From Verrucomicrobiia bacterium (lineage in GTDB: Bacteria; Verrucomicrobiota; Verrucomicrobiia; Palsa-1439): 64,000 nucleotides of DNA. Positions within the stretch are counted from its first letter, which is position 1. Each line of letters opens with the position of its first letter. The stretch is taken from positions 124,001 through 188,000 of the forward strand of contig JAJVHY010000020.1 in the NCBI GenBank assembly GCA_022072455.1. The letters are read 5' to 3'. Below are positions 7,250-14,309 of this stretch, piece by piece. Position numbers and translations under genes: made by a program. The notes below the pieces were generated by a model, which saw nothing but the letters and a program-made list of their open reading frames with translations, was not told the origin of the DNA and did not search any database.

Positions 7250-7289
7250 GGACGATTAGCTCAGTTGGCTAGAGCGCTTCCCTTGATAA
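7250..7289 (+). pseudogene. 5' half of tRNA-Val gene (attL-like remnant)
   Basis: Bases 7250-7281 equal tRNA-Val nucleotides 1-32: acceptor 5' strand, D arm and 5' strand of the anticodon stem. One extra C then shifts the anticodon loop (CTTGATA in place of TTGACAT), and no 3' half (T arm, acceptor 3' strand, CCA) follows. It cannot make a functional tRNA. It is best read as the left attachment repeat of the island. Confidence 0.75.
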
Positions 7290-7435
7290 CTCTTCCCCAC
7301 AACTCCAGAGCACTCCGCTAACTCTACTCTATAGTAACTATTACTCTATATAGAGTAACTATATAGTAAGCGACTCTCCCCTTACCCGCTTCAGCGGGCG
7401 CGAAGCTCCCTCGGGAAGGGTTATCAAGGGAAGCG
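7275..7435. repeat. 16-bp inverted repeat enclosing AT-rich palindromes
   Basis: The 16 bases at 7275-7290, which include the end of the tRNA remnant, recur as an exact reverse complement at 7420-7435, 129 bp apart. Between them lie an 18-bp perfect palindrome (7341-7358, TTACTCTATATAGAGTAA), repeated AGTAACTA words on either side of it, and a CCCGC-TTCA-GCGGG hairpin (7385-7398). The arrangement resembles a MITE-like insertion, a recombination or resolution site, or the stem of a structured RNA. No coding potential is seen. Confidence 0.6.
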
Positions 7436-7446
7436 ATCTACAAACT

Positions 7447-7472: not shown

Positions 7473-7876
7473 GAGTTTGTCCTCGTCGTCTCCGAAGTTG
7501 CCAACTTTCGGCTCATTCTGTCCAAAGCGGCGACTCATCCGGGTCGTTTCGGATGATCTGCCAGCGGTCGGTGGCGGTGCGGAACGGAAGCGAGTCTGGT
7601 GCGTGGCGTGTCGCAGCAGGCCGCTGGAGTGGAGCCACAGGCCACCGATTGGAGAGAGTGAGCCGAAATTGAAGGCCGTCCCGCGTCGTGTGCGGTCGGC
7701 CTCAATGGGTGGTGCGCCGCCTGACGATCTCGATGACTGCCGTGGGTCATGGAGTCGGCAGGCGGCGCAGGCGAATTTCAGCGCGCAAACGTGACTCTAG
7801 CAAATCAGGTCACGCTGTAAGGGGCTTTAGAGACACTTGTCCAAAGGGCTGCCACGCGCTAGACTCGCCGAGAGCC
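7473..7876. other. Non-coding stretch upstream of the ATPase gene
   Basis: About 400 bases between the terminator-like hairpin and the ATPase start. The plus-strand frame open here (7471-7794, Arg/Ser/Pro-rich) has no family resemblance or ribosome binding site and looks incidental. I see no clear consensus promoter; the ATPase promoter should nevertheless lie in this interval. Confidence 0.4.
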
Positions 7877-9394
7877 ATGAATCTATTTGAAAATCGACCG
7901 TTCAAAACTAGGAACGCGGAAGAGTTCGAACTGAATCAGGTACTTGACCTTTTCGTGGATCCGGCCGAAGGAGCTCGAAACCCCTTTGAGTTTGAGAATG
8001 TCATTGTCAAAGGACGCCAAGGCTCCGGTAAGACAATGTACTTGAGAGCCAATCTTGCATACCATTCTTATTCCATTGTCCCTTCGCTCTTGGGTGGCCA
8101 ACCCCCAACCTTGCCGGTCCTCCTTCGACTGAGCGATTTTCAACACATCAGAAACCCAGAAGAAATTTACCGAGAGGTTGTCATCAGCATTGTTGATGAA
8201 CTGGCCAACAGTTTTCTTCAACTGCTCAATGCTCAACGAGTGGCGCAACTTCACTTGGGCATGCAATCGTTGCCTGCGAACCTATTGGACGTAGGGAAGA
8301 TTGCGGCGGCGAGACGCGCCCTCGTCTTGCTCCGTGCGGATGAGTATGAAGAAACGATCACGCGTGAGTTGGGAACTACGGCGGCGATCAAGTGCAAGCC
8401 GATAGAGTTGGCCGGAAAACTCAAGACCGAAGGCGTTCTGGGTGTCAAGAAAAAGGCTAAACCCGGCGTTGCAGACATCCGCGATGCGTTCAACTTTTTG
8501 CTGGGTAATAGCGGAGGAAGCATATTGCTTCTTATTGATGAAGCCGGTCAGTTGGACGAGTCATTCTTCAGGACAAATGCTGGCAGCTCGCTTTTTGAAA
8601 CCCTGATGAACCAATTGCGGACGCAAGAGTACATTCGCACGAAGATCGCCGTATATCCTCACTCGTATTCTGACACTCTTACGGAAACAAGGTATGGCGA
8701 CCTGCTCCTTCTCACCGACCCTATTCGAAGCGATGTTGGTTACAAACGGTTTCGGGGAAAGACGTTGAACATCATACAAAACTATCTATCAGTCTCGGCC
8801 GGGGAGCCGACTGTCGCTTCACAGATTTTCGATACCGACGGTTCGCCGGACGGAGTTGGGGATTGCTTAGAGCAGATCATCTACGGATCCGATGGCAACA
8901 TTCGGAGATTGATGCTCATCTTGGATCTGGCAATGGAGATTGCACATGCCGAGCACGGGGGCAAAGGCAGGGTAACGATAGCAAACGCATTCGGTGCGCT
9001 AGTCCGCCAATCGGAAGCGATGGAGATTCTATTTTCCGAGGAAGAGTTGGGCTTCTTGGAAGACGTAGTCAAATTGTGTAAGAGTCGCTCTTGCTATAAA
9101 TTCCAATTCCCTAAGATGACACCTTTGCTGACCAAGTACTGTGAGAAATCAAACGAGCACAACATTCTCAAAGTGAATGAGATTGGAACTGGTCGTCGGC
9201 CAACTACGTATGAATTTGATTATGCCTTCTGCATCCATCGTGACATCCCGACGCATTGCATACCGGGGACGGAACGAGTGGATAAGAATCGCTCGTTTCA
9301 AACGGGTGCTTGGATTACAAGGAAGACGAATATTTCCAAAGACCTGGCAGCCAGAGCTAAGCCTGTTGCGAAGCAGGAAGGGGTGAATGTCTGA
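7877..9394 (+). CDS. Orc1/Cdc6-like AAA+ ATPase, putative defence component
   Basis: A 505-residue P-loop ATPase. I chose the ATG at 7877 because conserved-looking sequence starts there; the frame runs further upstream without such sequence. Walker A is GRQGSGKT (46-53), preceded by the NPFEFENVIVKG stretch typical of bacterial Orc/Cdc6-like ATPases. Walker B is LLLIDEAG (217-224). A sensor-2-like GSDGNIRRLM sits at 337-346, and the C-terminal 120 residues could be a winged helix. Related ATPases often serve as the sensing or motor subunit in antiphage systems, though that is family context and not proof. The stop abuts the next ATG with no gap, so the pair is cotranscribed and coupled. Base use is more A+T-rich than in flanking core genes. 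Confidence 0.7.
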   Translation: MNLFENRPFKTRNAEEFELNQVLDLFVDPAEGARNPFEFENVIVKGRQGSGKTMYLRANLAYHSYSIVPSLLGGQPPTLPVLLRLSDFQHIRNPEEIYREVVISIVDELANSFLQLLNAQRVAQLHLGMQSLPANLLDVGKIAAARRALVLLRADEYEETITRELGTTAAIKCKPIELAGKLKTEGVLGVKKKAKPGVADIRDAFNFLLGNSGGSILLLIDEAGQLDESFFRTNAGSSLFETLMNQLRTQEYIRTKIAVYPHSYSDTLTETRYGDLLLLTDPIRSDVGYKRFRGKTLNIIQNYLSVSAGEPTVASQIFDTDGSPDGVGDCLEQIIYGSDGNIRRLMLILDLAMEIAHAEHGGKGRVTIANAFGALVRQSEAMEILFSEEELGFLEDVVKLCKSRSCYKFQFPKMTPLLTKYCEKSNEHNILKVNEIGTGRRPTTYEFDYAFCIHRDIPTHCIPGTERVDKNRSFQTGAWITRKTNISKDLAARAKPVAKQEGVNV

Positions 9395-11504: not shown

Positions 11505-12263
11505 ATGAGCCAACCCTCCCGCAAATCGCTCACCGCGGCGACGTGGAACGTCGAACTTTTGGCGGCGACCGGTCAGGCGTGTTTCTGGACTTTCACGTTC
11601 TGGAGTCAGCAGTGCTACAAAATTTTGTCAAAGCAGTTTGCACGGTTTCAGGAGCAACTGGTGCACAAGCACGGCGCATACGGTTTCCGGGTTTGGGAAG
11701 CGCACGAGGAGGCCGGCTTGCACGTGCATACGGTGATGGTGGCCGATGTCGAGTACATGCCCAACCCGATGGGGCCGGAGTACGGGTCGTATTCGGAGCA
11801 GATCGAGGAGTGCGCGCTTGACACGTTGGTGGGCATCTATCATTGCGCCGGCAAGGTGAGTCCGAATTTTCAGTACCCGGTCAAGCGCATCAAGGCGGAG
11901 TGCGTGAAGCAGTTTCACGACGACCAGTGGACGATCAACGCGCGGCGCTGGGGAACGTTCGGCAATTTTCCTGGGCGGCAACGGGTCCGGGACATCTATG
12001 TAACGGGCCCGGAGTCAGAGTGTTACCAAGCGGCACTGGCGCTGCGGGAGCCCGGCGAAAGCATCGACACGGTCGAGCGCATCGCGACGCATCTGTTTTT
12101 GGATTACTTGAGGTCGACAGAGCCGGCGGAAGTATGTCGCCGGCTTGTAGAAGTGGAAGGAGGTGAAATGGAATATGAGTATGATGACGAATTCTGTCGG
12201 GCGTTTGAGAGTGGAAGTGGAACTCCGCGGAGCCAAACTGATTCAGACGGGCCGGGCTTCTAA
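11505..12263 (+). CDS. rep: HUH-type rolling-circle replication initiator (Rep)
   Basis: A 252-residue protein. FWTFTFW at 27-33 fits Rep motif 1, and GLHVHTVM at 71-78 contains the metal-binding HUH pair (H73, H75), preceded by FRVWEAHEEAG as in plasmid and filamentous-phage initiators, where the text before HUH reads (E)xHxxGxxHxH. ARRWGTFGNFPG at 146-157 matches the RxWG segment common in such Reps. I could not assign the catalytic tyrosine with certainty; the YHCAGK region (112-117) is one candidate. These proteins nick one strand at an origin and prime rolling-circle replication. The gene overlaps the next one by about 90 bases, typical of compact replication modules. Confidence 0.65.
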   Translation: MSQPSRKSLTAATWNVELLAATGQACFWTFTFWSQQCYKILSKQFARFQEQLVHKHGAYGFRVWEAHEEAGLHVHTVMVADVEYMPNPMGPEYGSYSEQIEECALDTLVGIYHCAGKVSPNFQYPVKRIKAECVKQFHDDQWTINARRWGTFGNFPGRQRVRDIYVTGPESECYQAALALREPGESIDTVERIATHLFLDYLRSTEPAEVCRRLVEVEGGEMEYEYDDEFCRAFESGSGTPRSQTDSDGPGF

Positions 12264-12628: not shown

Positions 12629-12883
12629 ATGAAAAAGATTTATGACCGCGATCAGATTTTCGACGAGGAGCGGCGCTCGGATTTTCTCTGGTGTCTGCAT
12701 TGCGAGCGCACCTATAACCGTGGGGCGTACCGGCTGGTCGACGGTCTCCAAATGTGTCCCTATCCTGACTGCGACGGAGATACCGTCCTCGATGGCTGGG
12801 ATTGGGAGCAGGTCCGAGAAGCAAACCCCGATTACCCGCTGATTCCGGAAGAAGGAAAGCAGTATCCTCTGTATCCGAAATAG
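12629..12883 (+). CDS. Small zinc-ribbon protein
   Basis: An 84-residue protein behind an excellent ribosome binding site (AAAGGAGG, 12613-12620). It has two cysteine pairs, CLHC (22-25) and CPYPDC (43-48), a likely Zn ribbon, and is acidic with a Tyr/Pro-rich tail (YPLIPEEGKQYPLYPK). The gene is framed by two copies of the same hairpin, so it is transcribed and terminated as a unit. Function is unknown; small zinc-ribbon proteins of mobile elements are often anti-host or regulatory factors. Confidence 0.65.
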   Translation: MKKIYDRDQIFDEERRSDFLWCLHCERTYNRGAYRLVDGLQMCPYPDCDGDTVLDGWDWEQVREANPDYPLIPEEGKQYPLYPK

Positions 12884-12958: not shown

Positions 12959-13723
12959 TTAATACCCGAGCGCTTCTTTGAGAATCCGCAGTGTCATACC
13001 CCCGAGAAGCCATTTGGGTTCGCACCAGACACCGCGCCAACCCATGACAGTGGCCGCATTGCGCTTGGCGTGTTCATTGCGGATTTGCCCGCCGTAGTTG
13101 TGACCGCCAAGGATGAGCTTGCGCTCGCCGGTGGTCTTGTTGGTGACGTAGAAGCCGAAGATGCCGCCATCGACTTCGAGATACACCTTCTTGTCGGGGA
13201 ACGCATAGTCGAACCGCCAGCGGCGGACGGGATGAAAGCGGAATTCAGGATAGCAGCGGTCTTTGATTCCGACCTTTTTGAAGTATTCAAGGACGTAGTC
13301 AGTATTCCATTTGATCCGGACGCGGTTCTGCGATTCCGGCGCAGTAGAAGCGGGAGTGACTTCGGTTGACAGTGAGGATGGCAAGGAAGCGTTCCCATTC
13401 GCCTTTGCGGTCGTGGAAGTGGTCGTGGTGGGTGCGACAGAGGGTGACGCCGTTGGACAAGACGCGCCGGAGATCGGGGCGCTGGCGGCGGCTTTGGATG
13501 TGGTGCGCGTCGAGGTTCGTTTGCGCGCCGCAGTGCGGGACTTGGCAGGTGTAGTCGTCGCGGCGGAGGACGGCTTGTTTCCATTTTTCGTCGGTTGTGA
13601 ATTGCATGCTGGATTCTCCTTGAATTGCGGGTTGAGGGTGTCGGGATACTCGTCGAGATGCTCGTCACGGTAGAACAAGCGCCCTGTGGGTTCTTCAACA
13701 CTGATTTGATGATGATGGTTCAT
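12959..13723 (-). CDS. PD-(D/E)XK-type phage-like endonuclease (start uncertain)
   Basis: The frame is open for 254 codons, but only the last ~120 residues look like a conserved domain. FRFHPVRRWRFDYAFPDKK and VYLEVDGGIFG give the FD...(E)xDGG core of a nuclease family common in phages, followed by GHNYGG and the GWRGVWCEP strand. There is no ATG between the first codon and this domain; the middle of the frame is Thr/Ser/Ala-rich and overlaps the HNH gene out of phase. Translation may begin at a TTG near 13384, or the first ~43 residues (MNHHHQISVEEPTGRLFYRD...) may be a separate small gene. The domain is well supported; the extent is not. Confidence 0.5.
   Translation of the reverse strand: MNHHHQISVEEPTGRLFYRDEHLDEYPDTLNPQFKENPACNSQPTKNGNKPSSAATTTPAKSRTAARKRTSTRTTSKAAASAPISGASCPTASPSVAPTTTTSTTAKANGNASLPSSLSTEVTPASTAPESQNRVRIKWNTDYVLEYFKKVGIKDRCYPEFRFHPVRRWRFDYAFPDKKVYLEVDGGIFGFYVTNKTTGERKLILGGHNYGGQIRNEHAKRNAATVMGWRGVWCEPKWLLGGMTLRILKEALGY
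13299..13607 (-). CDS. HNH endonuclease
   Basis: A 102-residue protein. Start ATG at 13607 follows an AAGGAG eight bases upstream. The HNH core is complete: a CQVPHC pair (21-26), the catalytic AHHI (34-37), then the Asn and LCRTHHDHFHD (57-67), a zinc-stabilised ββα-metal nuclease as found in phages, mobile elements and McrA-type enzymes. The gene lies inside a longer open frame used by the downstream nuclease, and its C-terminus overlaps that domain's first codons. Likely role: DNA processing or self-spread of the element. Confidence 0.75.
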   Translation of the reverse strand: MQFTTDEKWKQAVLRRDDYTCQVPHCGAQTNLDAHHIQSRRQRPDLRRVLSNGVTLCRTHHDHFHDRKGEWERFLAILTVNRSHSRFYCAGIAEPRPDQMEY

Positions 13724-14232
13724 GTCGTTCTTTCTATCCGTTGTTCAATGGGTGTTAATTCACCTGACGGACGCCTGAGTCCGTCACGCAGGGTCGCGGT
13801 AGGAAGCGGGTCGTCTCGATTCCGTTAAGCCGCGAGGTCAAGGAGGAACGAAAGTCACGCAGTGACCGCGCGGCGGCGAACCCTTCAGGGTCGCTTTCGT
13901 AGTGTCCTTGACACCCTTGCCCCGAAGGGGTCGAGCACCACCGGAAATTGGTCGTGTCAATTTCTGAGGAGCGCAGAGGCCTCTGCGTATGCTGGGGCGT
14001 CCGTGAGAGCCCATCCGGCTCTGGAGGATTCCATTGAGCGACGCAGCGGTCGTGTCGCGAGTCGAGCGTGGGCCGTAAGGTCGTTAAGGTGGAGGGCGGA
14101 AGAGAAAGGTGCGGAGTGCTCGGACAGAAACATGGTACGTCGGGGCGGAGAATGGTCGTTGATTACCCCAGAGCATGTTTAGTTGATTCCTGGAGATGTA
14201 ATGTGGTAGTTCTTTACCCCGTGGCGTGGGAG
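13724..14232. other. Hairpin-rich non-coding right end of the island
   Basis: About 500 bases with no supported gene; the 106-codon plus frame at 13862-14182 is Arg/Ser-rich and has no family features. Five hairpins lie within 225 bp: TGACGGAC/GTCCGTCA (13765-13786), GTCAC/GTGAC (13854-13866), GCGA-CCCT/AGGG-TCGC (13876-13894), CCCTT/AAGGG (13913-13929) and a 16-bp perfect palindrome CGCAGAGGCCTCTGCG (13972-13987). Such clusters are found at rolling-circle origins and in structured RNAs. A replacement promoter for the tRNA may be TTGATT (14183-14188) with TAGTTC (14207-14212). Confidence 0.5.
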
Positions 14233-14309
14233 GGACGATTAGCTCAGTTGGCTAGAGCGCTTCCTTGACATGGAAGAGGTCACAGGTTCGAGTCCTGTAT
14301 CGTCCACCA
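14233..14309 (+). tRNA. tRNA-Val (anticodon GAC)
   Basis: A complete 77-nt cloverleaf: acceptor GGACGAT/ATCGTCC, D arm GCTC/GAGC, anticodon stem CTTCC/GGAAG with loop TTGACAT, T arm ACAGG-TTCGAGT-CCTGT, discriminator A and an encoded CCA. The anticodon GAC reads GUC/GUU valine codons. Its first 32 bases are duplicated at 7250, which marks it as the island's insertion site. Confidence 0.95.

What the first reader, a model, noticed from the sequence alone, without database searches (positions are those of the whole stretch)
13765..13987. Five consecutive hairpins in the island's right-hand non-coding end
Within about 225 bp lie stems at 13765-13786, 13854-13866, 13876-13894, 13910-13932 and a 16-bp perfect palindrome at 13972-13987. 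No gene covers them. Such density matches a rolling-circle origin, an accumulation of recombination sites, or a structured RNA gene of the element.
Basis: seen in the sequence. Interest (0 to 1): 0.5.

Follow-up and report, generated by a model that had tools for sequence, protein, structure and literature searches.

The report
Dispersed foldback element in tRNA island
The cluster of hairpins contains one strongly conserved folded stretch of about 76 bases that belongs to a small, apparently undescribed family of hairpin elements scattered through genomes of Verrucomicrobiota; the other nearby hairpins look ordinary.

Summary
The stems exist, but the important feature was missed: two of the five listed hairpins (13854-13866, 13876-13894) are the tips of one larger structure at 13837-13912, best read on the minus strand. 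It lies in the tRNA-side non-coding end of a ~7-kb island in tRNA-Val(GAC). A related island in another genome of the family keeps this stretch at 95% identity (6 differences over 80 columns with two bases added at each end, all unpaired), while three other stems nearby are poorly conserved. Covariance models trace the core to 18 of 165 relatives of a third genome (34 hits, 1-5 per genome), where it is the centre of a ~170-base rod with discrete limits in unrelated contexts. In 23 full-length copies, 14 of 28 pairs show changes on both sides (0 of 500 shuffles). Rfam has no match, and my searches found no paper describing it. Tests against a rolling-circle origin, IS110 bridge RNA, RAYT-associated REPs and canonical attC were negative. 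Best reading: a new family of foldback elements working as a folded single strand. Whether that strand is DNA (mobility, recombination) or RNA is open. The window copy is core-only, possibly decayed or specialised.

The parts
13837..13912 (-). Conserved core of the foldback element (76 nt): stem, asymmetric internal loop, stem, then two apical hairpins
   Evidence: 95% identical in a related island; 26 of 26 pairs kept in both; model and pattern matches in other genomes
13905..13912 (-). Basal stem, 5' arm in the minus-strand reading, pairs with 13837-13844
   Evidence: outer pairs covary in other copies
13837..13844 (-). Basal stem, 3' arm
13895..13900 (-). Second stem, 5' arm, pairs with 13848-13853; the conserved CACTA side of the internal loop overlaps its outer end
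13848..13853 (-). Second stem, 3' arm; the conserved TTCC side of the internal loop overlaps its outer end
13876..13894 (-). Apical hairpin 1
   Evidence: identity 0.95 in the related island
13854..13866 (-). Apical hairpin 2, an addition seen only in the window and related-island copies among the 32 aligned
13765..13786 (.). 8-bp stem outside the element, poorly conserved
13917..13933 (.). CCCC-GAA-GGGG hairpin next to the core, kept in the related island, not seen by eye beside the other copies
13972..13987 (.). 16-bp palindrome, not conserved in the related island
13302..13607 (-). HNH endonuclease ORF, conserved beside the element in both islands
   Evidence: PF13391 E 1e-4; 81% identical in the related island
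12962..13399 (-). phrog_503-type ORF after the HNH ORF; island homology stops inside it
14233..14309 (+). tRNA-Val(GAC), integration site of the island (island on its 5' side)
7250..7286 (+). Partial copy of the tRNA 5' half, left end of the island
   Evidence: 97% over 37 columns
7287..7371 (+). Conserved left end of the island beyond the tRNA half copy
   Evidence: 79% to the related island over 87 columns

Best explanation
The functional thing here is 13837-13912, a copy of the core of a dispersed foldback (rod-like palindromic) element of Verrucomicrobiota. In full-length copies the rod is about 170 bases: long stems of variable but complementary sequence, closed around conserved internal loops, chiefly CACTA or ATACTA on one side and GTTCC on the other. 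Shown: the family exists, its limits are discrete in unrelated contexts, its stems covary, it occurs 1-5 times per matching genome, and some copies lie near mobile-element genes. Inferred: one strand is used single-stranded and folded, and the conserved loops are the recognition site of a protein supplied in trans. I think the most likely use is mobility or recombination of the DNA, because neighbourhoods that are otherwise alike often part at the element's ends; the alternative, an RNA carried by mobile elements, is not far behind. The window copy keeps only the core with an added apical hairpin, and sits in the tRNA-side end of a tRNA-Val island in which I recognised no integrase, so it may be a decayed or specialised member.
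For: Core kept at 95% against 76% for the whole shared right-end block and 73% for the neighbouring AhpC-like gene; over 80 columns 6 of 6 differences are unpaired, p 0.0013. Loop pattern with a free apical part: 4 of 146 relatives of G507, reversed control 0. Model R2: 18 of 165 relatives, 34 hits, six families besides f1; 4 of those hits were members of the model. Limits of about -45 to +65 around the core in unrelated contexts. Covariation on 23 copies: 14 of 28 pairs with both-side changes against 9.6 in shuffles, 79 cells against 26.4, 0 of 500 for each. Breaks of shared neighbourhood near an end of the element: L087/L088, L101/L110, L090/L104, L102/L104, L095/L098. A copy that reads as a chimera joined inside the loop (L099, by eye).
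Against: No transposase or recombinase was tied to it: 0 of 30 Y1-transposase loci, and 1 of 17 IS110 loci, where the IS interrupts the element. No target duplication was established. Some neighbourhoods continue on both sides (L090/L102; G000/G009), and the breaks may be ordinary homologous recombination. The measure 'further pair types' does not exceed shuffles (25 against 23.3; 112 of 500), and in the six-copy alignment covariation was weak (one pair). The excess of G-U over A-C (29 to 8) comes mostly from one column (17 of 29), so strand choice is weak. The outer rod is missing from the window copy. In a phylum-wide sample only 1 genome besides G000 matched of 268.
Confidence: 0.5

Rival explanations
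1. A structured RNA carried by mobile elements (regulator, guide or protein-binding RNA), transcribed from the window's minus strand.
For: Conserved loops and covarying stems; minus-strand fold of the 76-nt core z -3.8 against -2.7 on the plus strand, and -4.8 against -2.5 for 110 nt of the related island; G-U exceeds A-C on that strand.
Against: For 110 nt of the window the plus strand folds better (z -4.3 against -2.9). The G-U excess is mostly one column. No Rfam match. No fixed gene partner: no relative of the window's HNH protein in the 30 loci L082-L111. Promoter and terminator were not looked for.
Confidence: 0.3
2. A rolling-circle replication origin for the Rep-like ORF 11505-12260.
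For: A Rep-like ORF (weak PF23343 match, E 0.019) with a GLHVH motif shared with three relatives lies in the same island.
Against: The related island keeps the hairpin, but its contig stretch L010 has no Rep relative. No hairpin match within 1.5 kb of Rep relatives L007-L009 at E up to 10. Copies elsewhere sit beside varied genes.
Confidence: 0.04
3. A cis-acting leader of the HNH ORF in these islands, with the resemblance to the dispersed element being ancestry only.
For: The core lies on the HNH strand, upstream of the ORF, in both islands and the whole block is conserved.
Against: 230 bases separate core and HNH start. The same core occurs without an HNH relative in L082-L111.
Confidence: 0.1
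4. Attachment-site (recombinase arm) DNA of the tRNA-Val island.
For: The basal stem reads TCCTTGAC, as in the tRNA anticodon arm; an island at the same tRNA in G001 has a tyrosine integrase.
Against: In other copies the outer pairs of this stem change while the inner loop stays, so the likeness looks coincidental. The G001 island has no match to the core at E up to 10.
Confidence: 0.06

Closest known systems
ERIC and other bacterial interspersed palindromic elements or MITEs (ERIC recalled; REP and MITE background in PMC3733652, passages seen)
   Same: Short, non-coding, dispersed, palindromic, discrete limits in unrelated contexts
   Different: Stem sequences vary with compensation while internal loops are kept; low copy number (1-5); target duplications not established
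GTAG-tagged REP repeats with RAYT transposases (PMC3733652, passages seen; it reports O. terrae of the Verrucomicrobia as highly enriched in GTAG repeats)
   Same: Palindromic, dispersed; 30 of 32 aligned copies hold CTAC (GTAG on the other strand) beside the loop
   Different: About 170 bases rather than 20-40; the tetranucleotide is internal and partly paired; absent in L090 and L102; 0 of 30 Y1-transposase loci carry the element
Integron attC sites (recalled)
   Same: Foldback site with two stems around an unpaired spacer and a variable tip; breaks of shared neighbourhood at its ends
   Different: Canonical boxes rare: RYYYAAC 2 of 23, GTTRRRY 2 of 23; no cassette arrays or IntI tied to it
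IS110 bridge RNA (recalled)
   Same: Rod with internal loops; one copy lies just upstream of an IS110 transposase
   Different: Only 1 of 17 IS110 loci has it, and that IS is inserted into the element

Membership tests
Interspersed palindromic element / MITE | Dispersed copies with fixed limits in unrelated contexts | tested here: met
Interspersed palindromic element / MITE | Terminal inverted repeats conserved in sequence | tested here: not met
   The end stem pairs but its letters change with compensation (helix 1: 6 of 9 pairs changed on both sides)
Interspersed palindromic element / MITE | Target-site duplication and empty sites | tested here: inconclusive
   15 locus pairs compared; breaks near the ends seen, no clean empty site or duplication identified
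GTAG REP / RAYT | Unpaired GTAG tag at one end of a short palindrome | tested here: not met
   Tetranucleotide internal; present in 30 of 32, absent in L090 and L102 and in G060
GTAG REP / RAYT | Copies flanking RAYT genes | tested here: not met
   0 of 30 Y1 loci (best E 3.9), flanks up to 1.5 kb; only 30 of the 88 listed Y1 matches were held as loci
Integron attC | R'' RYYYAAC and R' GTTRRRY boxes | tested here: not met
   2 of 23 in the left 60 bases, 2 of 23 in the right 70
IS110 bridge RNA | Structure beside IS110 transposases | tested here: not met
   1 of 17 loci; 9 of the 17 are cut short by contig ends
Rolling-circle origin | Kept together with the Rep gene | tested here: not met
Rolling-circle origin | Nicking by Rep | not testable with these tools
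   biochemical
Known structured RNA (Rfam 15) | Match to a covariance model | tested here: not met
   window and 12 other loci
Structured RNA (any) | Covarying base pairs | tested here: met
Structured RNA (any) | Transcript | not testable with these tools
   no RNA-seq held
tRNA-associated genomic island | tRNA gene with a partial direct copy at the other end | tested here: met

The most novel reading that the evidence does not exclude
The rod is the folded single-stranded substrate of an unidentified recombinase: a cassette-joining site, independent of integrons, by which Verrucomicrobial mobile elements swap genes at the end of the hairpin.
Probability: 0.13. Interest if true: 0.85.

Novelty: new variant of a known kind. 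Interest (0 to 1): 0.5.

Why it matters
It appears to be an undescribed, covariation-supported structured element found in genomes of eight family labels of one class (f1, f6, f101, f117, f141, f148, f156, f7; f148 rests on one chimeric copy and f7 on a minimal hairpin). Its nearly invariant internal loops point to a specific partner, so finding that partner would reveal either a recombination system or an RNA family not yet known in this phylum. It also shows that a hairpin cluster read by eye can hide a real element whose key pairing is long-range.

Tried and rejected
Rfam on the window and on 12 other loci: nothing relevant. Viral contigs, plasmids, phages: no match (one search allowed only a short tip and would have missed the window's own form). 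Pattern scan of genome contigs: two hits, one on a contig of the same length as G009's and one in an acidobacterial sequence that I judged chance. A pattern search of the own genome could not have matched the window copy, its gap being too short. Model R1 in 384 genomes: 7 matched; three I hold true (G000, G009, G507); L052 lies inside an ORF that reads as a ketoacyl synthase, and L054-L056 I judged chance from their alignments. IS110 link rejected. RAYT link rejected. attC boxes rejected.

Defence-gene link: I first picked neighbours that looked interesting and 8 of 10 proteins hit PADLOC (the window's ORC-CDC6-like protein and one L098 ORF did not). An even-handed pick of the nearest ORF of at least 150 aa, related ones removed, gave 6 of 23 tested (of 24) at E up to 1e-10, against 4 of 20 tested (of 29) for control loci around Y1 transposases. 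No enrichment; the idea is dropped.

Likeness of the basal stem to the tRNA anticodon arm: judged coincidental. Strand choice by G-U: weak.

Rows dropped before the covariation count: 9 of 32 (window and G009, no outer rod; L082 interrupted; L083 one arm missing; L088 near-duplicate of L087; L108 and L111 cut by contig ends; L099 chimera; L109 probable chance). The alignment was made by sequence, but the structure was chosen after looking for helices in it, which favours it. Four of the 34 hits had no locus and were not inspected. In some searches only 33 and 20 candidates per genome were scored, so copies may have been missed.

Full report
What was claimed and what is there. The five stems are readable at the given places. 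Counting perfect stems of 6 bp or more, the 223-bp stretch has 3; 6 of 286 equal tiles of the window and 14 of 500 shuffles have as many. Folding of 13750-14000 is better than shuffles on both strands. The excess is moderate.

Setting. The stretch is the tRNA-side end of an island between tRNA-Val(GAC) at 14233-14309 and a partial copy of the tRNA 5' half at 7250-7286. The island lies on the 5' side of the tRNA. It encodes an ORC-CDC6-like ATPase, a weakly Rep-like protein, an HNH protein and unknowns. I recognised no integrase in it, and the G001 integrase has no relative in the window. G009, probably the Verrucomicrobia isolate whose 22,624-base contig was found in genome contigs, has a shorter island at the same tRNA and beside the same AhpC-like gene. 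Its cargo is an AbiJ-NTD4/PDC-S32-like gene, but it shares the left end and about 1.1 kb around the right end. G001, of the same genus, has a different island there, with a tyrosine integrase.

What is conserved. Across the two islands, 13837-13912 is 95% identical, while the stems outside it range from 0.24 to 0.83. The shared right-end block as a whole is 76% and the AhpC-like gene 73%. All 26 pairs of the minus-strand structure are kept. Over 80 columns there are 6 differences, all among the 28 unpaired columns, p = 0.0013.

Family. A covariance model of the two copies searched in 384 genomes of the class gave one further convincing match, in G507, with identical loop sequence and a different tip. 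A pattern of the two loop sides with a free middle hit 4 of 146 relatives of G507 and its reversed control none. A model from the six copies then hit 18 of 165 relatives, with 34 matches in six families besides f1; four of these matches were used to build the model. A few of the weakest may be chance (L109 reads like coding sequence, by eye). In a phylum-wide sample 2 of 268 matched: G000 itself, with one copy, and G060, where identical minimal hairpins lie upstream of two inverted ISL3-like transposase copies.

Anatomy. Pairwise comparison of copies in unrelated contexts gives limits near -45 and +65 around the core. The full element folds into a rod in most of the copies folded. On 23 copies, 93.7% of cells pair, 14 of 28 pairs have changes on both sides, and 79 cells carry them; none of 500 shuffles reached these values, and slid controls fall to 35-52% paired. 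One measure, further pair types, did not exceed the shuffles (112 of 500). In the earlier six-copy alignment covariation was weak, one pair. Invariant or nearly invariant letters sit largely in and next to the internal loops. Window and G009 copies lack the outer rod and have an extra apical hairpin.

How it might work. Covariation implies that a single strand folds; both strands could do so, total folding energies of 23 copies are nearly equal, and the G-U excess that would point to one strand rests mostly on one column. In favour of a DNA function: fixed limits, dispersal, and pairs of loci whose likeness stops or jumps near an end of the element: L087/L088 99.5% up to +65, L101/L110 up to +68, L090/L104 up to +60, L102/L104 with about 880 extra bases beginning at the right end, and L095/L098 with about 260. 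One copy, L099, reads as two half elements joined in the loop, and L083 loses likeness at the core's left border. Against: no recombinase could be tied to it, L090/L102 and G000/G009 continue on both sides, and homologous recombination could give such breaks. Two inverted copies flank an integrase-like ORF in L112, but that ORF matched no Pfam family and this is one case. No relative of the window's HNH protein lies in the 30 loci L082-L111.

Known systems. I compared it with REP/RAYT, attC, IS110 bridge RNA, rolling-circle origins and Rfam; in each a tested defining feature failed. For REPs I saw passages of PMC3733652. Literature searches in the held library (listings seen), including one for four stretches of the sequence (0 papers), found no description. 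Only that library was searched.

Corrected idea. I first suspected a link with defence genes. With an even-handed choice of neighbours, 6 of 23 element loci and 4 of 20 control loci gave PADLOC hits, so I do not claim it.

Verdict. A real, conserved, dispersed foldback element; family identity is well supported, mechanism open.

Noticed in passing
window 7270-7297 and 7413-7440: A 28-nt, 93% complementary inverted copy of the tRNA-Val integration core and its continuation, 115 bases apart, with a TTACTCTATATAGAGTAA palindrome between them.
   Followed up: partly
window 11505-12260: Rep-like ORF (GLHVH motif) related to ORFs in L007-L009; beside the one in L007 a 95-aa ORF looks like a filamentous-phage coat protein (by eye).
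   Followed up: partly
window 7688-9394: ORC-CDC6-like ATPase followed by an ORF of unknown family; possible two-gene cargo. PADLOC gave no match.
   Followed up: partly
window 12629-12883 and L113 9767-9973: The small zinc-finger-like ORF of the island has a relative (59% over 69 aa) on a G670 contig that also carries the foldback element.
   Followed up: partly
L041 2014-7251: A different island at the same tRNA-Val in G001, with a tyrosine integrase beside its left end and a resolvase-like ORF (by eye).
   Followed up: partly
L148 1-1118 and 7398-8513: Two identical inverted ISL3-like copies, inner ends about 6.3 kb apart, around an aspartokinase-like gene and a tRNA-Thr, each with a minimal form of the hairpin upstream of the transposase ORF.
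   Followed up: partly
L112 6652-9221: Two inverted copies of the element flank an integrase-like ORF and an HTH-like ORF (names by eye).
   Followed up: partly
window 13302-13723: The HNH ORF is overlapped by a second frame open in both islands, which runs into the phrog_503-type ORF.
   Followed up: no
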